In this document: positions 27,404 to 50,099 of the stretch, in pieces | Layout: each line of letters begins with the position of its first letter | Numbering within the stretch: position 1 is the first letter of the stretch | Assembly (NCBI GenBank): GCA_020061465.1 | Contig: JAGUYG010000051.1 | Location: forward strand, 56,725-120,724 | DNA length: 64,000 nucleotides | From: Ignavibacteriales bacterium | GTDB taxonomy: Bacteria; Bacteroidota; Ignavibacteria; Ignavibacteriales; Ignavibacteriaceae | Reading direction: 5' to 3' | Notes under the pieces: model-generated | Database searches by the model: none | What the model saw: only the letters and a program-made list of their open reading frames with translations | What the model was told of the DNA's origin: nothing | Made by a program: the position numbers and the translations under genes

Positions 27404-27630
27404 TCGATGCTCCATTAGAGTGTTATCTGGAATAAAAGTGAAGCGCAACTTCGCATTCACCTGAAACTAATTAATAGTAAGGGTATAAACATAGACTCAT
27501 TAAAATGAATTAACTTATATCTTCTCACCCATTCAACCCGCTTGACAGACACAGTTTTAAAGGTCATCCAATCATCCAATCATTCAAACATTCATTCATG
27601 CAATCTGCAATCATTCAATCAATCATTTAC

Positions 27631-29439
27631 TCAATACGTCAATCCATACCCGTACGGAAACAACGGGTCGTAATTTATATCGCCGTAGTTAATGGGAATT
27701 TGCGACATAGATTTAGGCCATGTATGAGATAACAAGCCAGTTGGTGGATAATCACCAAACAAAACATCAGCCACTCCTTGCCCTTCGGTACCGGGAAGCC
27801 ATGCAGCAATGAAAGCATCTACTAAATTAATTGTGGGTTCAATTATCATCGGTCTTCCCGAAATTAAAATAACCACTACAGGTATTCCTGCATTTTTAAC
27901 TCGTTGGACTGCACTCAAATCATCCCAAGAAAGTGTAAGATTGTTTCGATCGCCTGCTCCTTCGGCATAAGGAGTTTCACCAATTACTACAATTCCTATG
28001 TCAGCTCCTTCCGCGCTACTTCCATCAATTGAAAAAGTAACATTTGTACTTTCATCAACTGTATTTTGGATTGCAGTTAGGATGGTTGTGCCGGTTGTAA
28101 TATTTCCGCTGCTACCCTGCCATGAGATTGTCCAACCGCCGCATTGATTGCCGATATCGTCTGCGCTCTTTCCAGCCACATGAATGTGTTTTAGATTTTT
28201 GGAAATAGGTAATACATTGTTAGTATTTTTAAGCAAAACGAGTGATTGACGAACACATTCCCGTGCAACAGCGCGATGCTCATTTGAACCGACTGAAGCT
28301 AATAAACTTTTATCGGCGTAAGGGTGTTCAAATAATCCCAACTCATATTTGATAGTAAGTATGCGTTTCACTGCATCATCTATTCTTTCCAGCGAAACTT
28401 TCCCTTCTGCGGCAAGCTCTTTCAATAAAGATATAAACTGTTTGTAATTAGTAGGAACCATAACCATATCAAGCCCTGCATTTATCGCAGTTTCAATATC
28501 GCTCTTATAATCGCCAGGAAGTTGATCGATTCCAGTCCAATCCGAAATAAGAAAACCTTTAAAGCCTAATTCATTCTTCAAAACATCTGTTAGCAGGTAC
28601 TTATTACCGTGCATTTTAATACCATTCCAACTGCTGTAAGAAACCATAATGGTTTTTACACCTGCATTAATAGCTGCAATATATCCAGGTAAATGAACTG
28701 TACGAAGAGTCTGTTCATCACAAATAGTGTTTCCTTGATCTTTTCCATTCTGCGTGCCGCCATCACCCACAAAATGTTTGACACAAGCTGCAATTGATTC
28801 TGGATTGTCCGGAGAAATTCCTTGAAAGCCTTTTACTGCTGCCTCTGCCATCATGGACTGAAGCTCAGGAGTTTCACTATAGCCTTCGTAAGTTCTTCCC
28901 CAGCGTTCATCCCGCGGCACGGCAATACATGGTGCGAATGTCCAATCAATTCCCGTAGCAGCAACTTCTTTAGCAGTAATTCTTGCTGCCTCCTGTACTA
29001 GGGAAGGATTTCGGGTGCATCCTAAGCCGATGTTGTGAGGAAATATTACAGCGCCTTTCACGTTACTGTGTCCATGAACAGCATCTATTCCGTATATCAA
29101 CGGTATTTTAAGTCTTGTTTGCAAAGCATAGGATTGATAGAGATCGTACATCTCAGCCCATGCTGTTGGTGTATTGACTGAAGGTGCCGAACCTCCGCCG
29201 CTCAGCAGTGAACCCAAATAAAAATTTTTTATATCCTCTATATTTTGAAGTGCACCCCTTTCGGCTTGAGTCATTTGTCCTATTTTTTCATCGATTGTCA
29301 TTTGAGATATAAGTGCATCGACTTTTTGTTCGATGGTTAGTACCGATTCGGGAGGAATAATTTTTTCTTCTTTACAAGAGAAGGCTATTATCAAGAAGAT
29401 AGCTGTAAAATGTAAAGCATTAAATCGTATTATTTGCAT
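27631..29439 (-). CDS. GH3 glucan beta-glucosidase lipoprotein
   Basis: A 602-residue two-domain GH3 enzyme without the Fn3 tail. The N-terminus carries a lipobox ending at C22 ([10 protein letters not shown]), so it is probably a lipoprotein. The nucleophile is D300 in [11 protein letters not shown], and [16 protein letters not shown] has the conserved KH. This form resembles exo-1,3/1,4-beta-glucanases. It follows the ROK kinase gene with a 157-bp repeat element between them, and precedes the second GH3. Confidence 0.93.
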
Positions 29440-30669: not shown

Positions 30670-31995
30670 TCATCCCTTAACTGTTTTTAGATATGCGGGA
30701 ATATGCCCTTTTGCACCATAATATGCAATAAACAAGTAACAAATTACCGGTAAAATAAAAGCATGGTGAATCCCGATGTTATCCGCAATTACTCCCTGCA
30801 AAACGGGAATGATTGCCCCGCCCACAATAGCGGTACAAAGAATTCCTGAACCCTGACCGGTATGTTTTCCTAAACCATCAATTGCCAGCGTGAAAATTGT
30901 TGGGAACATAATCGAATTGAATAAGCCTACCAGCAAAATAGACCACATAGCAACATATCCAAAAGTTAACATCGAGGTAATAACTAAACCTGAAGCTACG
31001 AAAGCGTTGAAGGCAAGAACAGTTCCGGGCTTTATTCTTCTTTGAACTGCCGAGCCGATGAAACGACCTATCATTGCACCGCCCCAATAAAAGGATATAA
31101 ACTTTCCGGCTTGAGCTTCAGGTAATCCGACTATGTCGGTATGACCAAAGTAATTTACCAAAAAGCTTCCTATAGAAACTTCGGCACCCACATAAACAAA
31201 AATTCCGACAGCGCCGAGTATGAGATGCTTATATCCCCATGCATTATGATAAAGATCGTCAAAACTTTTTCCTTTGCTGTTGCTTGCCGCTACCGAGGCG
31301 GCTTCGATTTCAGGTAATTTTATCAAAGCAAAGATTGCAGCTATTACCAATAGTGCAGCCGCTAAACCAAGGTAAGGTACTTGCACTGCGCTGGCTTCTG
31401 CTAATTGATATGCACTCAAATCAGCGTAGCTCATAAGTTGAATTTCTTCGGTGCTTTTTACTGCAACCGATAGTATTAACAGCGATCCGAAGTAAGGCGC
31501 TACGGTAGTTCCTAATGAATTGAAAGCCTGCGTTAAATTCAATCTGCTTGATGCAGTTTCCGGTTTTCCTAATATTGCAACATAGGGATTAGCCGCAACT
31601 TGAAGCAGTGTTATACCGGCGGCAAGAATAAATAATGCGATCAAGAAAATTGTGTACGATCTGTAACCTGCGGCAGGATAGAAAATTAAACATCCGATGC
31701 CTGCTGTAATAAGTCCTATAACTATTCCTTTTCTATATCCTATTTTTTCAACTAAAATACCTGAGGGGAGTGAAACTATTGCATAAGCCGCAAAAAAACT
31801 GAATTGAATGAGCATTGCCTGTGCATAGTTGAGTGAGAAAACCGCTTTAAGATGAGGAATTAAAATATCATTTAGACATGTTAAAAATCCCCACATGAAA
31901 AAAAGGGAGGTCAATATTGTAAGTGCGAATGTATAATTAGTTTCTTGTTCAGGTACTGAATTGTTTTTACCGGCGGCAAATTCCTGCACAGCCAT
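30670..31995 (-). CDS. FucP/GluP-like sugar MFS permease
   Basis: A 441-residue twelve-helix transporter of the fucose/glucose-galactose proton symporter group. The early helix has [19 protein letters not shown], a signature of this family, and later segments have GRFIGSAV and [14 protein letters not shown]. It imports a monosaccharide across the inner membrane, probably glucose given the adjoining ROK kinase. It heads the minus-strand glycan group, which is divergent from the sensory operon across a 731-bp gap. Confidence 0.92.
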
Positions 31996-32242: not shown

Positions 32243-32443
32243 TTACTCAAGTTGACCATTTAATTTCTTTATGGATTTAAACTCCGTTCAATAGGATCCT
32301 TCGGATAAAACGGTTTAATTCTCCAGATTTGGCTTTCAGCAGCCCACGACTTAAGTCGTGGGTTGCTTAACAAAAAATCTTAATTACTAACCATTTTAAT
32401 GGTTTTCAATGTAATATTAAACCAGAGCGGTCAACTTGAGTAA
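32243..32443. mobile_element. 201-bp element with 15-bp terminal inverted repeats
   Basis: TTACTCAAGTTGACC (32243-32257) and its exact complement GGTCAACTTGAGTAA (32429-32443) bound a non-coding 201-bp segment. A 20-bp palindrome lies in the middle. A third copy of the end motif lies at 21572. The size and structure fit a MITE. No clear target duplication is visible. Confidence 0.6.
32343..32362. repeat. 20-bp perfect palindrome (REP/IS200-type)
   Basis: CCCACGACTTAAGTCGTGGG is fully palindromic and flanked by AGCAG/GTTGCT, which extends the stem. Hairpins of this type occur at IS200/IS605-like ends and as REP sequences acted on by related Y1 transposases. No transposase gene is present in the window. 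Confidence 0.55.
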
Positions 32444-32528: not shown

Positions 32529-32567
32529 GTTATTATTTTAATAACAAAATATTATTAAATTGATAAG
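32529..32567 (+). promoter_or_regulatory. Tandem 17-bp palindromic operators, sensor operon
   Basis: Two 7-3-7 palindromes: GTTATTA-TTT-TAATAAC at 32529-32545 and ATTATTA-AAT-TGATAAG at 32551-32567, with centres 22 bp apart. The same arrangement occurs upstream of the GH2 and SSS genes. The distance from the second centre to the -12 G of the sigma54-like promoter is 104 bp. They probably bind the sigma54 activator encoded in this same operon, giving autoregulation. Confidence 0.75.
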
Positions 32568-32649
32568 GTGAAAAAAGCAGGAATAAAAAATTACATTTCA
32601 TATTAACCGATTTTAAGTATTGCCGATTTGTTATTACTTAGGATATCTA

Positions 32650-32665
32650 TGGCAAGTAAAATGTA
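32650..32665 (+). promoter_or_regulatory. Sigma54-like -24/-12 promoter, sensor operon
   Basis: TGGCAAGTAAAATGTA fits TGGCAC-N5-TTGCW with a full TGGCA -24 element and TG at -12; the usual C after it is T. It is placed about 62 bp before the ATG of the binding-protein gene, in phase with the tandem operators upstream. Confidence 0.65.
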
Positions 32666-32726
32666 AGAAATTAATTATTGTAACATTTGAATAAATGCTT
32701 AATCAAAATCCGATTTAAGAAGAAAA

Positions 32727-34040
32727 ATGAGATTTGAAAAACTTATTTATGTAATTGTCAGCTCGTTATTTGTTACCGTGCTGATTCTTGTAAGCTATGT
32801 TTACAATCCTTTTAATTCCGTTGAGAATTCCGGAAAGAATGTGAAGAGGATTTTTTTTGTCGATCACATTTCATCGGCGCATCAAAAGCTGATAGACAAT
32901 TTTAACCGGAAATATAAAGGTCAAATTTTTGTTGAAGCTATTAACCTGCCGTTTGATAAATTCAGTACAAATGAACGAAAAGAATTGCTTGCGAGATATC
33001 TAAGAAGCAAAAGCGATCGCATAGATGTGTTTTCTGTCGATCAAATTTGGGTTCCGAGGTTTGCAAAATGGGCGGTTCGATTAGATAATTATATCATTCC
33101 AAAGCAGAGAGAAACCCTGCTGAAATATGCGCTCGAGTCATGCTTGTTTAATGATACACTCGTTGCAGTGCCATTATATATAGACGTTGCTTTAATGTAC
33201 TATAGAAAAGACCTGCTCAATAAGCTGCCTAAATATAACTCAGTTATAAATAGGATTGAAAACTCAATAACCTGGGAAGATTTTATTGAATTAGGTAAAC
33301 AATTCAAGAAAGAGAACACACCCTTTTTTATCTTTCAAGCCGACGATTTTGAAGGGCTTATCTGCAGCTTTGTAGAAATGATGGCAAGCCAGGGAAAGGG
33401 AATGGTTGAGAACGATTCGCTTAAGCTAAACACGCCGGAAGCGGTAAAATCGTTACAGACACTTATCGATCTCGTTAACACTTATAAAATTTCTCCTTCG
33501 GAGGTAGTTCAATTCAAAGAAAATCCGAGCTATAAATATTATTTGCAAAACAACGGAGTGTTTTTAAGAGGCTGGCCAAGTTTTCCTTTAGATTTTAAAG
33601 ACAGTGAATTTTCTTATCTTCTTGAAAATATTGTAAGAGCACCCACGCCGCATTTCAAAGGCAAAAAAGCAGCTTCTGTCTTTGGAGGCTGGAACTTAAT
33701 GATTTCAAAATATTCAACTAATGTTCAGGAGTCGATTCTATTCATAAATTATTTATTGAGCGAGGAAGCACAGCAAATTTTGTTTGAAGAAAGCGGTTTC
33801 CTTCCTATTGTTAATTCACTTTATGAGAACCAAAAGTTTAATGATAAATACCCGGAAATTTTATTCTACAAAAAATTATTTAATCAAGGTATACACAGAC
33901 CGTTTCTTGAGACATATACAAATATATCGGACATCCTTTCATACTATTTGCATCTTGCAATTAAAAATGAATTATCCGCTGAGGAAGCTCTTTCTCACGC
34001 CTCAGCAAAAATTAATTCGGAATCAATTTTACTTAAATGA
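32727..34040 (+). CDS. Membrane-anchored sugar-binding protein (ABC type), likely sensor subunit
   Basis: A 437-residue family-1 extracellular solute-binding protein with an N-terminal membrane helix (about residues 6-25) and no obvious cleavage or lipobox, so it probably stays anchored. The fold signatures include VFSVDQIWVPRFAKW, VPLYIDVALMYYRKDLL and AAS-VFGGWNLMISKYS. No ABC permease or ATPase gene is nearby. Instead, a histidine kinase starts 15 bp downstream. I infer it presents bound oligosaccharide to that kinase rather than to a transporter. Confidence 0.88.
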   Translation: MRFEKLIYVIVSSLFVTVLILVSYVYNPFNSVENSGKNVKRIFFVDHISSAHQKLIDNFNRKYKGQIFVEAINLPFDKFSTNERKELLARYLRSKSDRIDVFSVDQIWVPRFAKWAVRLDNYIIPKQRETLLKYALESCLFNDTLVAVPLYIDVALMYYRKDLLNKLPKYNSVINRIENSITWEDFIELGKQFKKENTPFFIFQADDFEGLICSFVEMMASQGKGMVENDSLKLNTPEAVKSLQTLIDLVNTYKISPSEVVQFKENPSYKYYLQNNGVFLRGWPSFPLDFKDSEFSYLLENIVRAPTPHFKGKKAASVFGGWNLMISKYSTNVQESILFINYLLSEEAQQILFEESGFLPIVNSLYENQKFNDKYPEILFYKKLFNQGIHRPFLETYTNISDILSYYLHLAIKNELSAEEALSHASAKINSESILLK

Positions 34041-34055
34041 GAGGGGATAGGAACG

Positions 34056-35534
34056 ATGGGAAAGAAAAGATTTTTTGAAAGTCTTCGCGAGTATCATTTT
34101 GAATTTAAACATCTGACTGTGTTGTTTATAGTTATATTCTTTTTTCAGCTTGTTGTTTCATTCATTAACAAGTCATCCATTAAAAACTTTCTTAGCAGCA
34201 CTCAGGAATGGTATCAAAAAGATTCTGCCGAGAGATTAGCTAACTTAACCACTACTTCTATGGAACTGCTGCTTGAGACGATAAATCTACAGGAAAAAAT
34301 TTATGGCGAAAGCAAAGAAAAAATAATTCAGTCATTTGATATAATACTGAGTCAGCAAATACTTCAGCATAACATACAGGAGATTTGCATTCTAGTTAAC
34401 AGAGGACAAAACATTTACGCAATAGACGAAGGGAAAATTTTATTCTCCTTTTTAACAAATGATAGGTCATTTATTCCAGAAACAAAAATTTCTCACAGAC
34501 AAGCTATTGAGCTGTATGACAAATTAAAGGAAGATATTCGTTCCAACGAGCAGATACGAAGCATACTTACCGAAAAACAAACTTTTCACATCTTCGTTCC
34601 TTTTGTGCTCAGAGGTGAATATATCGGGGCTGTGTATGTAAAAAACACACCGGACTTTTCGTTCATCACCGATCAAATAATTTCAAGCTATGATGAAACA
34701 TCGGTAATATATCTTTCATTCATTTTGCTCGGGCTTCTTGCCATGTATTTTATTTCTTCTTACACCGTAAAAGAAAGAGACGACACACAAAAGCTGTTGT
34801 TTGACGAACACGAAAGAAATCTGAAAAAGCAGATTACTTATGAGAAGGAATTAGTTTTCACTAAAAGAATTTATCACACTCATCATAAGGCGGAAAAAGT
34901 GATGGGATTTATTAAAGAAGACTTAAGAAATCTTTCTGCAGATAATATAGACGATGTTAAATACCGCGTAACCAAATACTCCAATTTTATTTCAAGAGTG
35001 ATTTATGATATGAAGTGGTTCGATCCGCCGCTTCAAACTATACGCAATCCCATATTCAATACAAATGTAAATGAAGTAATCAGATTTATTGTAGATAACA
35101 TTTTTTTACGGATTACAACAAAATCAAATGCTTTAGAGATTAAATTAAATCTTGACGAATCACTGCCAAACGTACCGATTAATGAATTCGTAGTTTGGGA
35201 AATAATCGAACCGCTCATTCAAAACGGATTAGATCATGGAGGAGTAGAAAATCTGTTGATAAATGTTTCAACAAAATTTGAACATCACTCTAATTCTGCA
35301 AAAATTTTCATATCAGATAACGGAAAGGGAATATTGCCTGAGCTGTTAGAAAGAAATGAAGAAGGTATAAAAAAAATCTTCTTAGAAAATGTTACTTCCA
35401 GACATGTCGATGCAAGAAATGTGGGTTACGGCTGTTATATTGCTTATGAGATTAGCAAACGATGCGGATGGGACATTGATGCAGTGAATTTAGATTCGGG
35501 GGGATGTATGTTTACAATAAATTTTTCGAATTAA
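34056..35534 (+). CDS. Membrane sensor histidine kinase
   Basis: A 492-residue kinase with membrane helices at about 20-37 and 217-236 enclosing a 180-residue periplasmic sensor region rich in helices. The likely phospho-acceptor lies in RIYHTHHKAEKVMG (H274-H277; which one is unclear because the H-box is unusual). The ATPase domain is standard: WEIIEPLIQNGLDH (N390), DNGKGI (421-426) and a glycine loop in NVGYGCYIAYE. It is encoded between the binding protein and the sigma54 regulator, 15 and 12 bp from each. Confidence 0.9.
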   Translation: MGKKRFFESLREYHFEFKHLTVLFIVIFFFQLVVSFINKSSIKNFLSSTQEWYQKDSAERLANLTTTSMELLLETINLQEKIYGESKEKIIQSFDIILSQQILQHNIQEICILVNRGQNIYAIDEGKILFSFLTNDRSFIPETKISHRQAIELYDKLKEDIRSNEQIRSILTEKQTFHIFVPFVLRGEYIGAVYVKNTPDFSFITDQIISSYDETSVIYLSFILLGLLAMYFISSYTVKERDDTQKLLFDEHERNLKKQITYEKELVFTKRIYHTHHKAEKVMGFIKEDLRNLSADNIDDVKYRVTKYSNFISRVIYDMKWFDPPLQTIRNPIFNTNVNEVIRFIVDNIFLRITTKSNALEIKLNLDESLPNVPINEFVVWEIIEPLIQNGLDHGGVENLLINVSTKFEHHSNSAKIFISDNGKGILPELLERNEEGIKKIFLENVTSRHVDARNVGYGCYIAYEISKRCGWDIDAVNLDSGGCMFTINFSN

Positions 35535-35546
35535 AAAGGGAAGAAG

Positions 35547-37001
35547 ATGTTTAAGAATTCAATCAAAGTGCTTTTAATAGAAGACGAAGAGTACGACGTA
35601 CGCCGTGTAATGAATACTATAAAACCATTTGCCGATAGGATTATCATTTCTAAAATAGCATCCAACGGTTTTGAAGCTATTGAAGAGTTGCAGAAGGGAA
35701 AAGAAAATTATCATGTTGTAATTATGGATTTTCAAATTGCCGGTGGACTTATGGGCGAAAACCTAATCCAAAAAATCAAATCCTTTGATCCTTCCCTGCA
35801 GATAATTGTCATCACTAAAATGACCGTGAATATTGCCGATTTGAATTTTGCAAATAATCTTATTAAAGCCGGTGCCTATTGGTATTGCACAAAATATCCC
35901 GGGGATATTGAAGATTATATTTATCAGCCGACAGATTTTATAATCAGCATTTTTAATGCGCATGAAAAATGCCAGCTTGAAAGGGAGCGAAACCGTTCCA
36001 ATCAAAAAATTATAAAAAATGTAGAAGATATCTTGCAGCAAAAAAGAATTGAAGGAGTATCCGAAGCTATTAAGCATCTGAAAGACGACATTAAAAAATA
36101 TTCTCAGTCCGATGTAAGCATTCTGATTAAAGGAGCTTCTGGCACAGGAAAAGAACTTGTTGCTTACAACATTCATTACCAAAGCCATCGCAAACTCGAA
36201 AATTTTGTTCCCATCAACTGCGGAAGCATTCCGAATGATCTTGTTGAAAGCGAATTATTTGGTTATGAGAAAGGAGCGTTTACCGGCGCCGATAAAAAGA
36301 AACCGGGCTTGTTCGAGCTTGCAAACCACGGAACAATCTTCCTTGATGAAATAACCGAACTGCCCCTGCCTGCACAGGTTAAGCTTCTTCGGGTAATTCA
36401 GGACGGAGAAGTTGAAAAAATCGGGCGGACGGAAAAAATAAGAGTGGATGTTCGGATAGTTGCTGCAACGAATAGAAACATTGAAGAAGAAGTAAAAGCA
36501 AAACGATTCCGTGAAGATTTGTATTACCGCTTAAACGTTGTCCCGATTGTTGTTCCCGAATTAAAATATAGAAGAGATGACATACCCGTACTGCTTAATT
36601 ATTTCCTCGGTTATATTAGCATCGATATGGGAAAAGATAAACCGGAAATTATCCCCGATGCCATGAAAGTTTTTCTTGACTATCATTGGCAGGGCAATGT
36701 GCGAGAGTTAAAGAATGTGAGCCAGCGGCTATTATTTACCGATGAAAAAGTAATTACTGCGTCGATTGCAAGACGCGCAATTGGAATTATGGAAAATCAA
36801 ACCGCAGTTCAAAATGAAGACGGAATAGATTTTAAAGCTGCGGGCGATATCATTCCGCTTAAACAAATGGAAAAAATATTCAGAGAAAGATATTTTAAGT
36901 TTGCAAGAGAAAACTCATCATCGGATACTGAAGCAGCACGAAAGCTTGGTTTGGCTCCGCCTAATTATTACAGGATGGCTAAAGAGTTAGGATTAAAATA
37001 A
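35547..37001 (+). CDS. Sigma54-dependent response regulator (NtrC family)
   Basis: A 484-residue protein: receiver domain (acidic E12/D13, phospho-acceptor D61 in VVIMDFQ, lysine K116), then an AAA+ domain with Walker A GASGTGKE (196-203), the sigma54-contacting GAFTGA loop (243-248) and GTIFLDEI (262-269). A Fis-type HTH ([22 protein letters not shown]) ends the protein. It activates sigma54 promoters when phosphorylated. The intact GAFTGA loop agrees with the -24/-12 promoters found at 32650, 40046 and 43054. Confidence 0.96.
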
Positions 37002-37065
37002 AGAAGGGAAACGCTTCGATGATCGAGCTAAAGATTTGTACCGATTCACGCAAAGGTCGAAAACC

Positions 37066-39795
37066 ATGAATACTAAATTACTTAACATCACATTTCTGTT
37101 ATTCATCACGAATGCCGCATTTATATTAGATACATCAACATACACAAAAATATTTGCGCAAGAAACTTTTTCGAAGATCGTTATCAATGAAATTATGTAC
37201 AATCCTCCAGCCAGCCAGGGAGATGATGATTTTTATGAATGGCTGGAAATTTATAATAACTCCGGTGACACGGTTGATATAGGCGGATGGTATATTCTAG
37301 ATGATCAGGATTCTCATACACCTTATACTTTTCCGGCTGAGACAAAAATTTACCCTGGCGAGTACATTATTGTTGCCAAGGATCCGGCATCGTTTTCAAG
37401 CTATTACAATATACATGATGTTTACGGGGGGCATTCATTTAACTTCGGCAATAGTTCCGATCAGGTTAGGTTATTTGAAAGCAGCGGTGAACTGCACGAC
37501 ATTGTAATTTATTTTGATAATATTCCCTGGGCGCCCGAAGCCGACGGAAGCGGGAAAAGTCTTGAGTTAATTAATCCTTCGCTTGATAACAATTCCCACT
37601 TGAGCTGGAAAGCCAGCATTGAACACTTAGGTACCCCCGGCAGAGTTAATTCGGTTTATTCTGAAATTACAACCCTGCCGGCACCGGTAAATGTGAGGGT
37701 AACAAACAGAACCATGAATTCAATTACTTTGAATTGGGATAATGTTGAGAGTGCAAATCATTATTTAGTTGAAAGAAGGGATTGGCCCGATACCACAGTT
37801 ATTGCTTCATCAGACATAAGCGAAGATAATTTTTTTGAAAGCACCGGATTAAGTCCAAACGGGCAGGTTTATCTTTACAGAATTAAAGCTGTAAACGATA
37901 CTTCCGACGGAAGATTTTGTGAGACGGTATACGGCATTACGACCGGTGAAATACCGCACCTTCCACAGTTTCGCCTGCTGATTTCAAAAGCAAATATAGA
38001 CTCGATGAATGCAGATATAACAAGTGATATTTACGTGCCAACAACATTTTTTATCGGCGATACAATTGCTATAAATGCGCGCGTCAGATACCGCGGACAA
38101 AGTGCGAGGTTCTGGAATAAAAAATCATGGCGGGTAAAGCTGCCTTCGGATATGCTTTACGAGGGGCAGGATGAAATAAATTTTAATTCGGAATATGTTG
38201 ACGAATCGCTGATAAGAAGCAAACTATGTTACGATCTTTTCAATAAAGCCGGGGTTCTATCGAGCAGTTGTGAAATGACTTATCTGAATCTTAACGAAAG
38301 TTATTACGGAGTTTTTGCTCGAATAGAACCTGTGAATAATTATCTGCTTGAAAGATGGGGTTATCCGGCAGCGGGCAGCTTATACAAAGGTGCAAGCGAG
38401 CTGAAAAAAGGAACGGCAAGATTAAATGAAAAAAAAATAGGCGATCCGGATGATTTTTCGGATCTCGAACAACTAATTGATTTTCTCCATTCAAAATTAA
38501 CTGTTGAACAGTGGAGAGATTCTGCGCTTAAGCTGATTGAAGTTGAAAAGTTTTTTGACTGGTATGCCGTAAATGTTCTTGTAAACAATATGGACTTTCC
38601 CGCAAAGAATTTCTACCTGTTCAGACCACCGGGCGGAAAGTGGATCTGGATTCCGTGGGATTATGACTTTTCATTTGGAAGGCATTGGAACTACGGATAC
38701 TTTGATTTTACAATTCGTACCGATGATCCGATTGACGGTGGAAGCATCAACAGCCCTAAAGTAGATGATTTATATAATATTCTTTTAAGCCGCTTGATTA
38801 CCATTCCCGAATTTGTGGACATATACAAAGACAAGCTAAAAATGTACATGGAAAATCTTTTCACAGTTGATTCGATGTTTGCACAAATTGATAAAAATTT
38901 TGCCTCTATTTATGAAGATGCTTTAAAAGATCAAATGAAAGCGATAAGTAATGATTTCTTTTCAACTCAGGACCTTAGACTTAACTCCTTTGTCTTGAAT
39001 AGAATAAATTTTATTGAGACAACGCTTAGTAAAACAGACGATGTCGATTTATATAATTCTAAATCTCGACGTGCCGAATCTGATACAACCATTTTAATTG
39101 ATGCATTAGCACATCCTGTAGTTAAAGTTACAGGCGCAAAATGTTTTGACAGCGTAAGTGTTTCAACCGATCCTTTTGTTTCATTCAAGGGAAGTCCAAA
39201 CACACTTAAGTTATTTAATATCAAAATCTATTCTTCGGAGGCTTGCGCCAGTTTGAAATTTGGATTAGTCTATAACCGGAGTGATCAATATTTCACTAAT
39301 GTTGGGAGTTCTAATCTTTACTCCGTTTACCAATTTTTCATGGGTAATTGGATTAGAGTGACCGGAGTTTATCATGATTATCTCAGAAAGACAATGTGGG
39401 TAACGCCGCTATTAATAGACAGTGTGTATTTATTTGCTATTGGCACCTCATTACCGACAGATATTGAAGAAGTTGAAAAGGAAATAAAACCTTTTGAATT
39501 TAACCTTTCACAAAACTATCCTAATCCTTTTAATCCAACTACTCAAATAAAATATAGTATAAAAGAAAGTGGTTTGGTTACTTTAAAGATTTATGATTTG
39601 CTTGGAAGAGAAGTAGCTACATTAGTCAACGAAGAAAAACCCACCGGCACTCACTCAGTTAATTTTTCCGTAGGATCCTTTGGAGGTGCGAGCAATCTGA
39701 CAAGCGGAGTATATTTTTACTCTATTACAGCCACGCCAAATGGCGGGCAAGCCGGAACATTTTCGCAAACTAAGAAGATGATACTGCTGCGTTAA
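37066..39795 (+). CDS. Secreted lamin-tail/CotH protein with type IX sorting domain
   Basis: About 909 residues: signal peptide, a lamin-tail domain (IVINEIMYNPPASQGDD..EWLEIYNN), an Fn3 domain, a CotH kinase-like domain (RVRYRGQSARFWNKKSW, KSWRVKLP, FNSEYVDESLIRSKL, IPWDYDFSFGRHWN) and a Por-type sorting tail starting SQNYPNPFNPTTQIKY. ATG 37066 gives a proper signal peptide; a TTG at 37036 would add ten residues. It lies 64 bp behind the sigma54 regulator and may belong to the same transcript. CotH domains can be protein kinases; its target is unknown. Confidence 0.88.
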   Translation: MNTKLLNITFLLFITNAAFILDTSTYTKIFAQETFSKIVINEIMYNPPASQGDDDFYEWLEIYNNSGDTVDIGGWYILDDQDSHTPYTFPAETKIYPGEYIIVAKDPASFSSYYNIHDVYGGHSFNFGNSSDQVRLFESSGELHDIVIYFDNIPWAPEADGSGKSLELINPSLDNNSHLSWKASIEHLGTPGRVNSVYSEITTLPAPVNVRVTNRTMNSITLNWDNVESANHYLVERRDWPDTTVIASSDISEDNFFESTGLSPNGQVYLYRIKAVNDTSDGRFCETVYGITTGEIPHLPQFRLLISKANIDSMNADITSDIYVPTTFFIGDTIAINARVRYRGQSARFWNKKSWRVKLPSDMLYEGQDEINFNSEYVDESLIRSKLCYDLFNKAGVLSSSCEMTYLNLNESYYGVFARIEPVNNYLLERWGYPAAGSLYKGASELKKGTARLNEKKIGDPDDFSDLEQLIDFLHSKLTVEQWRDSALKLIEVEKFFDWYAVNVLVNNMDFPAKNFYLFRPPGGKWIWIPWDYDFSFGRHWNYGYFDFTIRTDDPIDGGSINSPKVDDLYNILLSRLITIPEFVDIYKDKLKMYMENLFTVDSMFAQIDKNFASIYEDALKDQMKAISNDFFSTQDLRLNSFVLNRINFIETTLSKTDDVDLYNSKSRRAESDTTILIDALAHPVVKVTGAKCFDSVSVSTDPFVSFKGSPNTLKLFNIKIYSSEACASLKFGLVYNRSDQYFTNVGSSNLYSVYQFFMGNWIRVTGVYHDYLRKTMWVTPLLIDSVYLFAIGTSLPTDIEEVEKEIKPFEFNLSQNYPNPFNPTTQIKYSIKESGLVTLKIYDLLGREVATLVNEEKPTGTHSVNFSVGSFGGASNLTSGVYFYSITATPNGGQAGTFSQTKKMILLR

Positions 39796-39796
39796 T

Positions 39797-39851
39797 AAAA
39801 CCTCCGAGGTTAGCTATGCAATAATTGCGCTTTGAAAACCTCGGAGGTTTT
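39797..39851. terminator. Long hairpin after the CotH gene
   Basis: AAAACCTCCGAGGTT (39797-39811) pairs exactly with AACCTCGGAGGTTTT (39837-39851) across a 25-base loop, one base after the stop codon. It could end transcription of the sensory operon. The AACCTCCGAGGTT unit is also a common interspersed repeat in this lineage. Confidence 0.55.
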
Positions 39852-39934
39852 AGGATAAATCATGTTTCAGCACAGAGTGGTAGCGGCGAAATAGCAGTGC
39901 TGTTATATGTTCTACGGCTTTAACACCTTCATAA

Positions 39935-39973
39935 ATTATTATTTTGATAACCGCTTATTATTAGTTTAATAAT
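39935..39973 (+). promoter_or_regulatory. Tandem 17-bp palindromic operators, GH2 gene
   Basis: ATTATTA-TTT-TGATAAC at 39935-39951 and ATTATTA-GTT-TAATAAT at 39957-39973, with centres 22 bp apart. The second is a perfect 7-3-7 palindrome. The distance from its centre to the -12 G of the GH2 promoter is 94 bp. Same arrangement as at 32529 and 42944. Confidence 0.75.
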
Positions 39974-40045
39974 TCTTTTTACCTTCCTCATTAATCACGA
40001 TTCAGAATAATGAAGAAATTTGTAACAATTTCATCCAAAGCTGAA

Positions 40046-40061
40046 CGGTATATTTCTTGTC
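40046..40061 (+). promoter_or_regulatory. Sigma54-like -24/-12 promoter, GH2 gene
   Basis: CGGTATATTTCTTGTC has GG at -24 and TTG at -12 with the correct ten-base gap; the usual C after TTG is T, as in the sensor-operon promoter. Its placement predicts a transcript start near 40071, and this argues that the coding start is the ATG at 40132 and not an earlier in-frame codon. Confidence 0.5.
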
Positions 40062-40131
40062 TCTGCATTGGATTAGTCAAAGACCCTTTATCAAATTCTT
40101 AATAAATGTAAACTTAAAACAGGAAAAATTC

Positions 40132-42486
40132 ATGATGAAATTTATACGCCTGGAACAATCCTTACTTCTCCTATCAATCGTTACTGTAATTTTATTTTAT
40201 AATAGTTCTTCGGCGCAGATTGCATCTCTTGAAGCTACATTAAAGCTGCAAAAAGTGGATGGAATAAATATTCCCGTGCAAAACGGAATCCCGGTTCCTT
40301 CTTTCGAAAAACAGCAGCGTCAGATTATTAATCTTCAGGGTGAATGGAAAAAACAACGCTTTGCCGCTGCCGATAATATTACTCTTGCGAAAAGAGATCA
40401 AACAGGAATGAATAATCTTCTCAATGAAGCGGCAGGCAGATATTTAAAAGATTATGATGACAGCGCGTGGGAGTTAAAAATCCTTCCGGCAGTCGAAAAT
40501 ACAATGTATGAATATCCCAAAGTACCTGAATATTATGAAGACGGCGTTTGGTACCGTAAAAGTTTCACATTAGATGACTCTCTCGCCGGCAAATTTATTA
40601 AGCTGATGTTTTATGCCGTTAATTATGTAGCCGATGTGTGGATAAACGGACAATATTTAGGTTATCACGAAGGCGGTTACACTCCGTTCGCATTTGATGT
40701 TACAGATTATTTGATCTACGGCGAGGAAAATACTATTGCCGTTCGGGTTGATAATCCTGCCTGGGGAACAAGAATCGATATCGTACCATATTATAAAGTT
40801 GACTGGTTCAATTATACGGGAATTATTCACGATGTTTATTTAGAAATTACAAATCCCGTTTCAATTATTAGAACGGACATAGTTCCGCTTAATCTTGACG
40901 GAACAATCCAATCAACCATTGTATTACTAAATAGAGATAATTCAGATAAAAATATTGATGCATCAATTGAAATCTATAATGCGGATGTAAATTCAACTAA
41001 TATTAAAGCAGAAATTTCTTCGAAGTTAATCGGTACGGCTGCTTCATTTTCAGGTACCGCTCAAGCCTCAATCAATGTTATGAAAGATTCGGTTAAAGTA
41101 TGGCGTACAAATCTAATGGTAACAGCGCCTAAATTTTGGTCGCCAAAAGAACCTAATCTTTACGTAATGAAAGTAACGTTAAAAGCAGGTGAGAACGTAA
41201 TCGATGAGTACTTTACGCAGTTTGGAATACGAACTGTTCGAACACAGGAATTTAGAGTCTTACTGAATGATAAGCCTGTGTTTCTAACCGGCCTGGCAAG
41301 GCATGAAGATCATCCTGTTCACGGAAGAAGCATTCCGATAGAAAGAATTTATGATGATCTCGTAATGGTTAAAGATGTAAATGCCAATATGCTGCGAACT
41401 GCTCATTATCCAAATCATCTCTATACTTATCTAATTGCTGATAGATTAGGAATAACAATATTAGAAGAAATTCCTGTATGGTGGTTTGATGATTCGCTTC
41501 CCTGGCTTATTCAAAATTCAGTTAGACACATCCACGAACAAATGTTCAGGGAAATGGTCTTCAAAGATTATAATCGTCCTTCCATTTTGTTTTGGAGTAC
41601 TACAAACGAATGTAAAGACGTAGCAAACCGCAAAACTTTCATTCAAAAGGTAAAACAGGATTTAATTTTTAATTACAATGATGGAAGATTAATCACACAG
41701 TCAGCCGCTGCCGATAGACCGGGCGCTGAAGATGAATCGCAGGCTGTTTGCGATGTTGCAGGTTGGACGATGTACTTCGGTATTTTTCACGGCGGCACTT
41801 ATTACGACGGCACACGATATTTTTTAGGTTATGCTAATATCGCTTATCCCGAAAAACCTATACTCGATACCGAGTTTGGTTATTGGTCGGGTGAAACAGG
41901 CGGAAGCCAGGGAACACAAGTAACTGTGTTCAACGAAACTTTCCGTGCTTTTCAAATTAGAGCTGCAATGAAACCGGATGGTTCATTAAGCTGGGGCGGA
42001 TTTTTAATGGGTATAACATGGTGGTGCATCTTCGATTGGTACTCAAGTCAGCATCCGTATGGATTTCAAAGCATGGGATTGTATAATATGTTCAGAGATA
42101 CACCGAAGCAAGTAGCGCCTGTTCTTAGAGACGCTTACGCACCATACTTCAATCGTGGTGGAATACCTGTATTAGTTGAAGAAGAAAATGAATCGTCCTT
42201 GCCCGCTCAATTTAAGCTGTATCAGAATTACCCTAATCCTTTTAATCCATTAACTAAAATTTCTTTTAGCATACCAAAAAAAGCAGTTGTTTCATTGAAG
42301 ATTTATGACATTCTCGGTAATGCAATTCGTTCGCTTATAAATGAGGAAAGAGAAGCAGGCATCTACGATGTTGAATTTAATTCGGATAACCTTAGCAGCG
42401 GAGTTTACATTTACAGATTATCAGCGGGAGTTTCCGGAACAGCCGGCAGTTTTAGCGATTCAAAAAAAATGATTTTGCTGCGATAA
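40132..42486 (+). CDS. Secreted GH2 glycoside hydrolase with type IX sorting domain
   Basis: About 784 residues: signal peptide, the three GH2 N-terminal domains (YADVWINGQYLGYHEGGYTPF in the jelly-roll) and a TIM barrel with the acid/base E493 in STTNECKD and nucleophile E581 in LDTEFGYWSG. A Por-type tail (YQNYPNPFNPLTKISF) follows. ATG 40132 has AGGA seven bases upstream and gives a clean signal peptide. GH2 members cleave beta-galactosides, mannosides or glucuronides; specificity is not clear. Its promoter carries the tandem operators, so it is a predicted target of the sigma54 regulator. Confidence 0.9.
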   Translation: MMKFIRLEQSLLLLSIVTVILFYNSSSAQIASLEATLKLQKVDGINIPVQNGIPVPSFEKQQRQIINLQGEWKKQRFAAADNITLAKRDQTGMNNLLNEAAGRYLKDYDDSAWELKILPAVENTMYEYPKVPEYYEDGVWYRKSFTLDDSLAGKFIKLMFYAVNYVADVWINGQYLGYHEGGYTPFAFDVTDYLIYGEENTIAVRVDNPAWGTRIDIVPYYKVDWFNYTGIIHDVYLEITNPVSIIRTDIVPLNLDGTIQSTIVLLNRDNSDKNIDASIEIYNADVNSTNIKAEISSKLIGTAASFSGTAQASINVMKDSVKVWRTNLMVTAPKFWSPKEPNLYVMKVTLKAGENVIDEYFTQFGIRTVRTQEFRVLLNDKPVFLTGLARHEDHPVHGRSIPIERIYDDLVMVKDVNANMLRTAHYPNHLYTYLIADRLGITILEEIPVWWFDDSLPWLIQNSVRHIHEQMFREMVFKDYNRPSILFWSTTNECKDVANRKTFIQKVKQDLIFNYNDGRLITQSAAADRPGAEDESQAVCDVAGWTMYFGIFHGGTYYDGTRYFLGYANIAYPEKPILDTEFGYWSGETGGSQGTQVTVFNETFRAFQIRAAMKPDGSLSWGGFLMGITWWCIFDWYSSQHPYGFQSMGLYNMFRDTPKQVAPVLRDAYAPYFNRGGIPVLVEEENESSLPAQFKLYQNYPNPFNPLTKISFSIPKKAVVSLKIYDILGNAIRSLINEEREAGIYDVEFNSDNLSSGVYIYRLSAGVSGTAGSFSDSKKMILLR

Positions 42487-42785
42487 ACGTTGGTTATTTA
42501 TTTATGCACCACATCTTTATGGTCGCTGACTTTGACCTCGAAGCATACTCATGAATTACACAGAGTTACGCAGAGTGAAAACACAGAGGGTTCCAAAGAG
42601 ACGACTGAAAATTATTATACAAGTATTGTTGGTATTAAATTCTATTATGATAAGTATACTGGAATAAATAATCCGAGGATCCTTTGGACATTAAATGCAC
42701 AGCATCCTTTGGATACAAAATGATCAATGAATAATATTCGAATCAATTCAAAAGATTGCCATCAGCTTTCAATACAAGAATGCAC

Positions 42786-42809
42786 AGCCTGATTTATCAG
42801 GCTTTTTTT
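42786..42809 (+). terminator. Rho-independent terminator after GH2
   Basis: AGCCTGA (42786-42792), a four-base loop and TCAGGCT (42797-42803) followed by a run of seven T. It lies 300 bp after the GH2 stop; the part between holds no credible gene. Confidence 0.8.
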
Positions 42810-42844
42810 GGTGAGCGTCACCATTTATGATGCTTCGAACGTAA

Positions 42845-42864
42845 AGACGGGGCATGCCCCGTCT
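42845..42864. repeat. 20-bp GC-rich palindrome
   Basis: AGACGGGGCATGCCCCGTCT is a perfect palindrome in otherwise AT-rich sequence, flanked by GTAA/CTAC. Palindromes built on GACGGGGCATGCCCCGTC are widespread dispersed repeats. It could form a hairpin but has no T-run. Confidence 0.6.
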
Positions 42865-42943
42865 CTACAACCGTATAATACATAACCAATTAAATAGTTT
42901 GATAATTATTTCAAAAATTGTAGGGGAAATTTTAGTTACATGA

Positions 42944-42982
42944 CTTATTAAAATAATAAGCATCGCTTATCAATTTAATAAG
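42944..42982 (+). promoter_or_regulatory. Tandem 17-bp palindromic operators, SSS symporter gene
   Basis: CTTATTA-AAA-TAATAAG at 42944-42960 (perfect) and CTTATCA-ATT-TAATAAG at 42966-42982, with centres 22 bp apart. The distance from the second centre to the -12 G of the promoter is 93 bp. Same arrangement as at 32529 and 39935. Confidence 0.75.
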
Positions 42983-43053
42983 CAAATTCAAATGCTGCTG
43001 AAGAAAGGTGCTTACTTCAAACAAAATTCAATGTAAGAATTCACTCCGGTTAA

Positions 43054-43069
43054 TGGCATTGTTTGTGAA
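43054..43069 (+). promoter_or_regulatory. Sigma54-like -24/-12 promoter, SSS symporter gene
   Basis: TGGCATTGTTTGTGAA has a full TGGCA -24 element and a weaker -12 (TG then A rather than TTGC). It is 30 bp before the GTG start. The spacing to the upstream operators matches that of the GH2 promoter within one base. Confidence 0.5.
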
Positions 43070-43098: not shown

Positions 43099-44727
43099 GT
43101 GTATAACACCTTTACTTTTAGTGACGGCATAATTCTTTTCGCTTACTTAATTATTGTATTAAGCATGGGATTTTATTATTCAAGAGTAAGGGATAAGAAT
43201 TTTAACGAATATTTCTTAGCCGGTAAAAATGTGGGATGGTTCGCAATCGGATTTTCTATTTTTGCAACCAACATTTCAAGCGAACACTTCGTTGGATTAG
43301 CGGGTTCTGGTTCGGTACGTGGATTAGCGGTAGCTCAATTCGAGCTGCTGGCAATTTTCATTTTAATTCTCTTAGGTTGGATTCTCGTTCCTATTTACCA
43401 TCGTGCCGGTGTTGTTACAATGCCGGAATTTCTTGAAAAACGATTCGATGCAAAAAGCAGAAAATTTTTTGCGGGACTTTCGATTCTGATTTACCTGGTT
43501 ACGAAAATATCCGTAACAATTTTTGCCGGCGGTATTTTATTTTACAAAATTTTTGGGCTGAGCATCTATAATTCAGCAATAATCATTGTTCTGATTACGG
43601 GCTTATACAGCGTAATCGGCGGAGCTTCAGCGGTAATCAGAACGCATGTATTTCAAGGCTGGCTGATGATTTTAGGTGCCGTTACGCTAACATTATTCGG
43701 GCTTAATGAAGTCGGCTGGTACGAAGGCTTACGAAGCAAACTTCCGGCTGATTACTTTACGATGTTCAAGCCGATGACTGACCCGGATTTTCCATGGACA
43801 GGAATTCTCTTCGGCGCTCCTATAATAGCTTTTTGGTACTGGTGTACGGATCAATATATTGTTCAACGCTTGATGTGTGCCGGTACAATTGAAAATGCCC
43901 GCCGCGGTTCTCTCTTAGCAGCCTCGTTAAAAATTCTTCCTCTTTTCATTTTAGTTTTACCCGGTTTAATTGCGGCGGCTTTGTTTCCCGAAGTAAGCGG
44001 TGATGATGCTTATCCTGTGCTGCTTGCCAGCAATATTTTGCCCGCCGGAGTTAAAGGTTTTGTAATAGCGGGACTGCTTGCCGCTGTAATGTCGTCGATG
44101 GCAAGTGTATTTAATACTACTGCAACTTTGTTCGTAAATGATTTTTACAAACCGCGCCACCCTGAAGCTAATGAAAGAAAACTTGTTTTGATAGGTCGTT
44201 TATCAGCCACAGTAATTGTAGTGTTTGCAATACTTGGCGTGCCATTAGTGAAGCTTATCAGCTCACAAATGTACCTGTATCTTCAAAGTGTACAGGCATT
44301 CATCAGTCCGCCTATAACTGCCGTTTTTATCTTCGGACTATTAGTAAAACAAACTACTTCGAAAGCTGCTTTGTGGACGCTGATAATTGGAGAGGCAATT
44401 GGTGTAAGCAGATTAATCGCACAACTATTAATAAACACAGGGGTGTCAAACAATTCGTTATTGGTATTTTACACTCAAATTAATTTCCTTCACTTTGCAA
44501 TTTTTCTGTTTCTCTTTTCTTCGGTTTTAATTTTTTCGTTAAGCTATCTAACTAAACCAGTACAGCAAACTGTCGCAGATAAGCTGCAGTATCTTTTTGC
44601 CGAAAGCTTTGGCGAAGTAAGATTCAATTTAATTCACATGAAAAATGCTGCGGGGTATAAATCAAATATGATGCTCTCTGCATTCTTGTTTTTAATAATA
44701 TTAGGGTTATGGGGACTACTATATTGA
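43099..44727 (+). CDS. Sodium:solute symporter (SSS/SGLT family)
   Basis: A 542-residue inner-membrane protein with about 13-14 helices. It has the SSS features SSEHFVGLAGSGSVRGLAVAQ, an LVTKISVTIFAGG segment and the QRLMCAGTIENARRG loop that in SGLT-type carriers marks the sodium-symport fold. It starts with GTG. It likely imports glucose or a short oligosaccharide with sodium. Its promoter carries the tandem operators and a -24/-12 element, so it is a predicted direct target of the local two-component system. Confidence 0.92.
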   Translation: MYNTFTFSDGIILFAYLIIVLSMGFYYSRVRDKNFNEYFLAGKNVGWFAIGFSIFATNISSEHFVGLAGSGSVRGLAVAQFELLAIFILILLGWILVPIYHRAGVVTMPEFLEKRFDAKSRKFFAGLSILIYLVTKISVTIFAGGILFYKIFGLSIYNSAIIIVLITGLYSVIGGASAVIRTHVFQGWLMILGAVTLTLFGLNEVGWYEGLRSKLPADYFTMFKPMTDPDFPWTGILFGAPIIAFWYWCTDQYIVQRLMCAGTIENARRGSLLAASLKILPLFILVLPGLIAAALFPEVSGDDAYPVLLASNILPAGVKGFVIAGLLAAVMSSMASVFNTTATLFVNDFYKPRHPEANERKLVLIGRLSATVIVVFAILGVPLVKLISSQMYLYLQSVQAFISPPITAVFIFGLLVKQTTSKAALWTLIIGEAIGVSRLIAQLLINTGVSNNSLLVFYTQINFLHFAIFLFLFSSVLIFSLSYLTKPVQQTVADKLQYLFAESFGEVRFNLIHMKNAAGYKSNMMLSAFLFLIILGLWGLLY

Positions 44728-50080: not shown

Positions 50081-50099
50081 AGTTTTTGGAGGAAAAATA

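What the first reader, a model, noticed from the sequence alone, without database searches (positions are those of the whole stretch)
32529..43069. A local sigma54 regulon marked by paired 17-bp palindromes
Seen: three intergenic regions carry two copies each of nTTATYA-N3-TRATAAn (six sites). Centres are exactly 22 bp apart in all three pairs, two helical turns. Each pair is followed, 93, 94 or 104 bp later (centre to -12 G), by a sigma54-like GG-N10-GN element. The genes are the sensory operon itself, GH2 and the SSS symporter. Known: NtrC-family activators with GAFTGA bind tandem upstream sites at about this distance. Inference: the regulator at 35547-37001 binds them and controls glycan use, including its own operon. 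I know of no described regulon with this arrangement; that is not a literature search.
Basis: partly seen in the sequence, partly recalled or inferred. Interest (0 to 1): 0.87.

Follow-up and report, generated by a model that had tools for sequence, protein, structure and literature searches.

The report
Paired-palindrome switch for beta-glucan genes
In Ignavibacteria and related phyla the same two DNA palindromes, about two helical turns apart, stand in front of genes that look like ones for taking up and digesting beta-glucans, where they likely let a sugar-sensing three-protein system turn those genes on through sigma-54 RNA polymerase, with sister systems possibly kept apart by the spacing of the pair.

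Summary
In detail: six exact palindromes form three pairs, centres 22 bp apart, 93, 94 and 104 bp from sigma54-like elements. The own 4.2 Mb genome has no other perfect pair. In 80 family genomes a perfect pair and the solute-binding-protein (SBP) gene co-occur (33 both, 41 neither, 3 and 3 discordant). In 84,980 species genomes the exact pair lies mostly in Ignavibacteria, Calditrichota and KSB1, before homologous glycan genes (67 of 84 pairs examined). Corrections: spacing is 21-23 bp in the window's clade; the site is 15 bp; a fourth conserved target, the divergent MFS/ROK/GH3/GH5 operon, was missed, its sigma54 element now 314 bp from the pair with a 195-bp MITE between them; the element before the sensory operon scores at background, so autoregulation is weak. 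Most likely mechanism: SBP, kinase and NtrC-type regulator sense a beta-glucan oligosaccharide and activate sigma54 promoters from tandem dimers. Unexpected: a sister regulator clade with nearly the same HTH goes with the same palindrome at 19 bp (9 of 9 genomes holding that clade, 1 of 71 others). Binding, ligand and transcription are untested.

The parts
32530..32544 (.). palindrome TTATTATTTTAATAA, first site of pair 1 (SBP/MFS divergent region)
   Evidence: exact match; pair in the same place in relatives
32552..32566 (.). palindrome TTATTAAATTGATAA, second site of pair 1
39936..39950 (.). palindrome TTATTATTTTGATAA, distal site of pair 2 (GH2)
39958..39972 (.). palindrome TTATTAGTTTAATAA, proximal site of pair 2
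42945..42959 (.). palindrome TTATTAAAATAATAA, distal site of pair 3 (SSS)
42967..42981 (.). palindrome TTATCAATTTAATAA, proximal site of pair 3
43054..43069 (+). sigma54-like element TGGCATTGTTTGTGAA of the SSS operon, -12 G 93 bp from the pair
   Evidence: second best of the window by family-trained matrix; of 63 SSS sides (window included) 57 have an element, 49 of them at 80-98 bp
40046..40061 (+). sigma54-like element CGGTATATTTCTTGTC of GH2, -12 G 94 bp from the pair
   Evidence: score 12.0, seventh of the window; 22 of 24 GH2 sides have an element, 21 of them at 80-94 bp
   Evidence: third best of the window; 24 of 25 MFS sides of other loci have an element, 13 at 80-98 bp, 6 at 110-115, others at 73, 104, 126, 145, 145
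32650..32665 (+). candidate sigma54 element TGGCAAGTAAAATGTA before the SBP gene, 104 bp from the pair; weak
   Evidence: score 7.6; 40 places in the window score higher
32246..32440 (.). 195-bp MITE-like element with terminal inverted repeats CTCAAGTTGACC/GGTCAACTTGAG and an imperfect direct repeat of 7-8 bp at its ends, lying between pair 1 and the MFS promoter
   Evidence: 12 places of its inner palindrome in the genome, 11 exact; copies compared
32727..34040 (+). sugar-type solute-binding protein (SBP_bac_1), presumed sensor; no ABC permease domain among the 20 ORFs scanned between 19897 and 59383
34056..35534 (+). histidine kinase with HTHHK box invariant in 7 sequences and HATPase; outer domain between two hydrophobic stretches by my reading of the sequence
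35547..37001 (+). NtrC-type response regulator: receiver, AAA+ with GAFTGA, Fis-like C-terminal HTH by sequence; presumed reader of the pairs
37036..39795 (+). CotH/LTD protein with T9SS tail, co-directional after the regulator
40057..42486 (+). GH2 glycoside hydrolase with T9SS tail; start probably ATG at 40132, since the promoter overlaps the listed TTG
43099..44727 (+). SSS sodium:solute symporter
44813..47281 (+). CBM9 protein with T9SS tail
47363..50080 (+). TonB-dependent receptor
50034..53234 (+). conserved protein of unknown family
53241..54278 (+). PorV-like outer-membrane protein
54278..56077 (+). GH16 closest to 1,3-1,4-beta-glucanases, with malectin domain and T9SS tail
56143..58386 (+). 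GH3 close to beta-glucosidase BoGH3B
58520..59383 (+). GH16 close to laminarinase
30670..31995 (-). glucose/galactose-type MFS transporter (GluP subfamily), first gene of the divergent target operon
   Evidence: pair precedes its orthologue with no SBP in the fetched stretch in L116, L117, L120, L122
29701..30666 (-). ROK sugar kinase
27631..29439 (-). GH3
25157..27460 (-). GH3
23900..25114 (-). GH5, with CelC and exo-1,3-beta-glucanases among its nearest solved relatives

Best explanation
The paired 15-bp palindromes TTATYA-WWW-TRATAA, about two helical turns apart, are conserved before glycan genes and are likely the operator read by the NtrC-type response regulator at 35547-37001, which would activate sigma54 promoters of a locus predicted to use beta-glucans. 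Predicted steps: the sugar-binding protein (32727-34040), probably held to the membrane by its hydrophobic N-terminus, binds a beta-glucan oligosaccharide and docks on the kinase; the kinase phosphorylates the regulator; [quoted passage not shown] the ring reaches the closed sigma54 complex, most often about 82 or 93 bp downstream. Targets here would be the SSS/CBM9/TonB/PorV/GH16/GH3 genes, GH2, and (ancestrally at about 111 bp, now across a MITE) the MFS/ROK/GH3/GH5 genes. Shown: the sites, their spacing, their conservation before homologous genes, co-occurrence with the system, and sigma54-like elements on the target side. Inferred: which protein binds, the ligand, phosphorelay, transcription and operon extent.
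For: Own genome: 3 perfect pairs, reversed control 0, all in this locus, and one regulator of this kind at E<=1e-160. Family (80 genomes): perfect pair with any 0-30 gap in 36, SBP at E below 1e-80 in 36; 33 both, 3 pair only (G012, G045, G050), 3 SBP only (G002, G027, G055), 41 neither; Fisher 1.3e-15 with genomes treated as independent. 84,980 species: 83 stretches with the exact 22-bp pair, 80 of them listed; of the 84 pairs in those 80, 67 have a regulon-type homologue starting within 600 bp, 17 do not (12 in unrelated taxa, 5 in Ignavibacteria or Calditrichota, some at locus edges). Unlinked copies also precede MFS, SSS or GH2 orthologues. Sigma54-like elements: 136 of 158 target sides, 24 of 116 gene-less sides, 5 of 32 SBP sides. 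Pair spacing follows the regulator's clade. The HTH core LGLAPPNYYRM is nearly invariant across phyla, as the site is. Ligand: laminarinase-, lichenase- and BoGH3B-like enzymes and a GluP-type transporter in the locus; the SBP is nearest to a trehalose/maltose-binding protein.
Against: No binding or expression data exist. Relatives share ancestry, so all Fisher values are overstated. Target-side element counts take the best of about 120 positions, and gene-less sides are often coding DNA, so they are an imperfect control. Reversed-pattern controls are not empty: 3 of 80 genomes for the 22-bp pair at up to 2 mismatches, 1 of 80 for the perfect gapped pair. No HTH family model matched the C-terminus; the HTH is read from sequence. 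SBP, kinase and regulator stand together (49 of 52 loci), so co-occurrence alone cannot say which protein reads the site. Twelve exact pairs lie in taxa without visible regulon genes, so the pattern also arises otherwise. Regulator loci without a nearby pair: 2 of 30 in the main clade, 2 of 7 in the SSS-paralogue clade, 2 of 6 in the 19-bp clade, and both long single branches L104 and L115. The SBP-side promoter in the window is at background.
Confidence: 0.85

Rival explanations
1. The pairs are operators of another transcription factor (for example a repressor of sugar genes) that merely travels with these loci, and the NtrC-type regulator binds elsewhere.
For: No binding data; the palindrome alone does not name its protein. 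Twelve exact pairs occur in taxa without visible regulon genes.
Against: Pfam shows no other DNA-binding regulator among the 20 ORFs scanned between 19897 and 59383. Sigma54-like elements lie most often about 82 or 93 bp downstream on target sides, a fit place for an enhancer-binding protein. Spacing classes follow the regulator tree: 19-bp pairs with at most 1 mismatch are in 9 of 9 genomes with the 19-bp regulator clade and 1 of 71 others.
Confidence: 0.08
2. The pair serves the divergent MFS operon and the outlying catabolic operons only; the sensory operon is expressed constitutively and is not autoregulated.
For: SBP sides carry sigma54-like elements in 5 of 32 cases, no more than gene-less sides. 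MFS orthologues have the pair with no SBP in the fetched stretch in L116, L117, L120, L122. TAnnTTTG boxes (Bacteroidota -7 box, recalled) stand within 90 bp of 9 of 49 SBP starts, 4 of 60 SSS/MFS/GH2 starts and 5 of 98 kinase/regulator starts, a weak excess. In CuaDSR the sensory operon is constitutive (PMC10384115, passages).
Against: In the window's own subclade L070 and L072 have good elements on the SBP side at 100-101 bp (scores 14.2 and 12.9), near the window's 104.
Confidence: 0.55
3. The pairs are chance or repeat-driven AT-rich sequence, not a regulatory site.
For: The motif is AT-rich; single relaxed sites are hardly enriched in the window; reversed controls are not wholly empty in the family.
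Against: Reversed control 0 in the own genome. Shuffled half-sites of equal composition (18 runs) give 1-14 single sites and 0 pairs where the real site gives 340 singles, in loci that were partly chosen by the pair itself. Conserved across 3 phyla before homologous genes.
Confidence: 0.02

Closest known systems
NtrC-type (group I) bacterial enhancer-binding proteins with tandem upstream sites; CbrB as an example (PMC6296734, abstract and passages seen)
   Same: Sigma54 activator with sites on one face of the DNA, centres 20-25 bp apart, sigma54 promoter downstream.
   Different: CbrB uses three non-palindromic subsites with variable spacing and is a Pseudomonad system; here two 15-bp palindromes with near-fixed spacing, in other phyla, for polysaccharide loci.
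AatJ-AauS-AauR of Pseudomonas (PMC7386598, passages seen)
   Same: A solute-binding protein, a kinase and a response regulator in one locus; a palindromic operator TTCGG-N4-CCGAA. That AauR is itself a sigma54 activator is recalled, not in the passages seen.
   Different: Amino-acid uptake; the SBP belongs to an ABC transporter; one palindrome of another sequence; SBP-kinase contact was left open there.
CuaDSR three-component system of Ruminiclostridium cellulolyticum (PMC10384115, abstract and passages seen)
   Same: Sugar-binding SBP gene next to kinase and regulator genes; induces genes for a beta-glucan breakdown product (cellobiose).
   Different: AraC-type HTH in the regulator; target is an ABC transporter and phosphorylase operon; no sigma54 in the passages seen.
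Hybrid two-component systems of Bacteroides PULs (PMC11253607, abstract and passages seen)
   Same: Sense glycans and control polysaccharide utilisation genes.
   Different: Kinase and regulator in one chain (passages); AraC-type HTH, no SBP and no sigma54 are recalled.
Sigma54 regulon survey of 2025 (PMC12316311, term passages seen)
   Same: Surveys sigma54-linked genes, carbohydrate genes among them, across phyla.
   Different: Its main text has no occurrence of Ignavibacter- or Calditrich-; the carbohydrate passages seen concern PTS and other genes of Bacillota.

Membership tests
NtrC-type enhancer-binding protein | receiver domain | tested here: met
   PF00072, 38.2 bits over cut-off 30.2
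NtrC-type enhancer-binding protein | AAA+ sigma54-interaction domain with GAFTGA | tested here: met
   PF00158, 233.7 bits; GAFTGA in the sequence
NtrC-type enhancer-binding protein | C-terminal Fis-like HTH | tested here: inconclusive
   no Pfam HTH hit; Fis-like AARKLGLAPPNYYRMAKELGLK by sequence, little changed in relatives
NtrC-type enhancer-binding protein | sites upstream of -24/-12 promoters | tested here: met
   136 of 158 target sides; sequence evidence only
NtrC-type enhancer-binding protein | sigma54 present in the genome | tested here: met
   PF04552 in G000 and in 77 of 80 genomes
NtrC-type enhancer-binding protein | a named NCBIfam regulator (NtrC, AtoC, ZraR and others) | tested here: not met
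   25 of 29 matching models shown, none reaches its curated cut-off: a member of the kind, not of a named equivalog among those shown
NtrC-type enhancer-binding protein | binds DNA and activates on phosphorylation | not testable with these tools
   needs bench work
SBP-kinase-regulator three-component system | SBP gene joined to kinase and regulator genes | tested here: met
   49 of 52 loci; the other 3 (L067, L075, L096) run into the end of the contig or stretch
SBP-kinase-regulator three-component system | SBP lacks its own ABC permease | tested here: met
   no permease domain in the 20 ORFs scanned; only these were scanned
SBP-kinase-regulator three-component system | SBP binds ligand and contacts the kinase | not testable with these tools
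   needs purified proteins
SusC/SusD-type polysaccharide utilisation locus | TonB receptor (SusC) | tested here: met
   window 47363-50080
SusC/SusD-type polysaccharide utilisation locus | SusD partner | tested here: not met
   no SusD domain in the 20 ORFs scanned

The most novel reading that the evidence does not exclude
A family of sister regulators with almost the same recognition helix reads one and the same palindrome, and each is tied to its own regulon by the distance between two copies: 19 bp for one clade, 21 bp for others, 22-23 (less often 21) bp for the window's clade. Spacing of dimers on the DNA, more than base sequence, would be the specificity code that insulates paralogous glycan switches living in one cell.
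Probability: 0.42. Interest if true: 0.8.

Novelty: new variant of a known kind. Interest (0 to 1): 0.68.

Why it matters
It gives poorly studied phyla (Ignavibacteriota, Calditrichota, KSB1) a readable regulatory signal: one DNA pattern marks glycan loci genome-wide, unlinked ones included, and assigns them to a sensor. It joins polysaccharide use with sigma54 and an SBP-based sensor, where Bacteroides uses hybrid two-component systems. And it offers natural sets of sister regulators, often in one genome, for testing whether dimer spacing alone can separate paralogous regulons.

Tried and rejected
Recognition-helix covariation: the HTH is too conserved across clades to explain site differences, which is what led to spacing. 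Helical phasing of promoter distance: distances peak near 82 and 93; collapsed to one value per gene family and genus (96 groups) the phase concentration is 0.388 (best period 11.25; 0 of 4000 jittered sets reach it), but 37 elements on gene-less sides (lower score limit) also give 0.339, and outer distances are in phase in only 15-20 of 27 depending on the period; I treat phasing as suggestive, not shown. Housekeeping promoter of the SBP operon: 9 of 49 against 5 of 98 and 4 of 60, weak. The three-mismatch places on C68 and C100: the C68 one sits by a transposase-like ORF by my reading, probably chance; C100 was not examined. Kinase model: mean pLDDT 71.7, pTM 0.46, 7 sequences; the catalytic core matched solved kinases; I make no claim on the sensor fold. 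Insulation of 21 from 22-23 bp is doubtful: genomes with main-clade regulators have 21-bp pairs at unlinked targets (five in L220, L221, L222, L224), which one search did not count. The 19-bp test used a limit of 1 mismatch that I set after seeing the list; at 2 mismatches 24 of 80 genomes match and 8 of 80 match the reversed control; one search scored at most 19 candidates per genome, so short fragments of the clade could be missed. Literature; listings only, cut in some (15 of 1,870, 12 of 60); no title or abstract start described this motif, this regulon or spacing-coded sister regulators. Dropped rows: one search used 116 loci (window, 60 and 20 family stretches, 35 of the 80 named loci); 107 of them gave sides. 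Left out were the 12 unrelated taxa, L163, L193 and loci that I took for duplicates of family genomes, not checked one by one; identical regions were counted once. One search used 49 of 52 loci (L067, L075, L096 lack a full regulator). Place listings were cut; my tallies use their complete per-genome tables. The fold search showed the first 50 of 790 matches.

Full report
What is in the sequence. Proximal centre to -12 G is 104, 94 and 93 bp. In the whole genome (4,207,972 bp, 122 contigs) a search with up to 3 mismatches over both sites gives 5 places; the 3 perfect ones are these, and the reversed control gives none.

What the genes are. The first operon codes for a sugar-type solute-binding protein (SBP), a histidine kinase, an NtrC-type response regulator and a CotH protein. 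The second region precedes a GH2 enzyme, the third an SSS symporter followed by a CBM9 protein, a TonB receptor, an unknown protein and PorV. Further on lie two GH16 and a GH3 whose best matches among solved structures are a laminarinase (58520), a beta-glucanase of the 1,3-1,4 kind (54278) and BoGH3B (56143). On the other strand, divergent from the SBP gene, lie a GluP-type MFS transporter, a ROK kinase, two GH3 and a GH5 with CelC and exo-1,3-glucanases among its best matches. I infer a beta-glucan (laminarin or mixed-linkage) locus.

Conservation. In 80 genomes of the family, 33 have the 22-bp pair with up to 2 mismatches (reversed control: 3 genomes) and 36 have a perfect pair at any gap of 0-30 (reversed control: 1 genome). 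The SBP is found at E below 1e-80 in 36. Crossing the last two sets gives 33 both, 3 and 3 discordant, 41 neither. One of the discordant genomes, G045, does have a related regulator. I fetched 60 stretches: pairs there lie before SBP, SSS, GH2, CotH or MFS orthologues and a few other genes; SBP, kinase and regulator stand together in 49 of 52 loci, the window counted. Twenty more stretches around further pairs show MFS, SSS or GH2 orthologues again, and 19-bp pairs before other symporter, glycosidase and unidentified genes. A scan of 84,980 species genomes for the exact 22-bp pair gave 83 stretches, 80 of them listed. Of the 84 pairs in these 80 loci 67 have a regulon-type homologue starting within 600 bp; the 17 without are the 12 strays and L146, L163, L168, L187, L194. 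notes that records of the window's own genome may be left out.

Site and spacing. Over 89 distinct 22-bp pairs the half-sites are almost invariant by construction (up to 1 mismatch allowed), the central three bases are A or T in about 90% or more, and the 7-bp linker and outer flanks carry almost no information. In loci chosen by the SBP and not by the motif, spacings at up to 1 mismatch were 19 (8), 21 (8), 22 (39), 23 (12), and one each of 24, 25, 31, 44, 45; some of the 19s are register shifts of a 22-bp pair. So the window's three exact 22s are one value of a 21-23 range.

Sigma54 elements. Taking the best GG-N10-G element at 40-160 bp with a recalled weight matrix, 136 of 158 target sides, 24 of 116 gene-less sides and 5 of 32 SBP sides reach a score of 10 (19-bp pairs included). 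The learned element reads TGGYAY-N5-TTG (the GG and the G were required). A matrix trained on 115 elements outside the window ranks, in the whole window on both strands, 21716(-) first, SSS 43054 second and MFS 32221(-) third; GH2 is seventh, and 40 places score above the SBP-side element. Distances peak near 82 and 93 bp. rpoN is present in 77 of 80 genomes and in all 49 that are at least 90% complete and at most 5% contaminated.

The missed fourth promoter. AGGCATACTATTTGTC at 32221-32236(-) resembles the MFS promoters of relatives (AGGCATAGTATTTGAC in L067). It is 314 bp from the pair. Between them lies a 195-bp element with terminal inverted repeats, whose inner palindrome occurs at 12 places in the genome. 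Without the element and 8 bp of repeat about 111 bp remain. Of 25 MFS sides in other loci 24 have an element: 13 at 80-98 bp, 6 at 110-115, and 73, 104, 126, 145, 145; the six at 110-115 have the most similar elements. The direct repeat at the ends is imperfect here, so insertion is the likely but not the only reading.

The sensory operon. In relatives the SBP side rarely has a sigma54-like element (5 of 32, the window counted). The exceptions include L070 and L072, which group with the window in the regulator tree (four-row set, 97/84), at 100 and 101 bp. Autoregulation is thus possible in this subclade but not a family trait.

Sister systems. Regulators of 49 loci were placed on a tree. Pairs near them, at up to 2 mismatches: the 30-row main clade has spacings 21 (2), 22 (40), 23 (12); the SSS-paralogue clade 21 (5 of 5 pairs, in 5 of 7 loci); L099 and L102 21 (2 of 2); L090 and L106 21 (2) and 24 (1); the six-row clade of L108-L113 19 (6) and 31 (2), in 4 of 6 loci; L104 and L115 none. 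A search with a 19-bp pattern and up to 2 mismatches hits 24 of 80 genomes, and its reversed control 8 of 80. By my reading of that list ten genomes have a 19-bp pair with at most 1 mismatch that is not a shifted 22-bp pair; the other 14 match only at 2 mismatches, and about eight of these are such shifts. Nine genomes hold the 19-bp regulator clade (76% or more identity to the L110 regulator; two as fragments), and all nine are among the ten; the tenth is G021 (test). In G004, G066, G069 and G079 the 19-bp pairs share the contig of that regulator, and the same genomes have 21-23 bp pairs near the main-clade regulator; in the other five the 19-bp pairs are on other contigs than the regulator. 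The recognition helices differ little (LGLAPPNYYRM against LGMAPSNFYRM). One site of the 19-bp pairs often reads TYATAA in one half, so some base-level difference may also play a part, and main-clade genomes also use 21 bp at unlinked targets, so 21 does not cleanly separate clades.

Mechanism and its limits. The kinase keeps an HTHHK box and N/G boxes invariant in 7 sequences and models as a kinase core. The regulator keeps receiver, AAA+ and GAFTGA. SBP docking, phosphorelay, dimer-dimer contact on the pair and looping are inferred from CuaDSR, AauSR and CbrB and not shown here.

Known or new. Tandem sites for enhancer-binding proteins and SBP-kinase-regulator trios are known. My searches (open-licence library, listings only, several cut) showed no paper on this motif or regulon. 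The conserved paired operator across three phyla, a sigma54-SBP switch for beta-glucan loci, and the clade-bound spacing are, as far as these searches go, new.

Noticed in passing
window 32246-32440: 195-bp MITE-like element with 12-bp terminal inverted repeats; its inner palindrome CCCACGACTTAAGTCGTGGG occurs at 12 places in the genome; another terminal repeat copy at 21573.
   Followed up: partly
window 21716-21731 (-): TGGCATTATATTTGGC, the best sigma54-like element of the whole window, lies before a polysaccharide deacetylase/dockerin ORF (19897-21507) without an exact palindrome pair nearby: perhaps another enhancer-binding protein's target.
   Followed up: partly
window 11174-11188: A seventh exact single palindrome TTATCAGCTTGATAA inside an ORF.
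   Followed up: no
L171 4621-6567: In Lachnoclostridium an exact pair (6531-6567) overlaps the end of a 647-aa ORF that resembles the regulator (41% identity in the matched part) and precedes another ORF.
   Followed up: no
L136 3902 and L165 5376: Two Prevotella contigs carry the exact pair between the ends of the same two convergent ORFs (493 and 715 aa), so this stray is conserved there but not at a promoter.
   Followed up: no
L209 6053, 10137, 15552: In G069 three 19-bp pairs (2-3 mismatches) stand before GH3-, CBM9- and symporter-type genes on a contig other than the one holding the 19-bp clade regulator.
   Followed up: partly
window 50034-53234: 1066-aa protein between TonB receptor and PorV, conserved in relatives, with no Pfam or NCBIfam family.
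   Followed up: no
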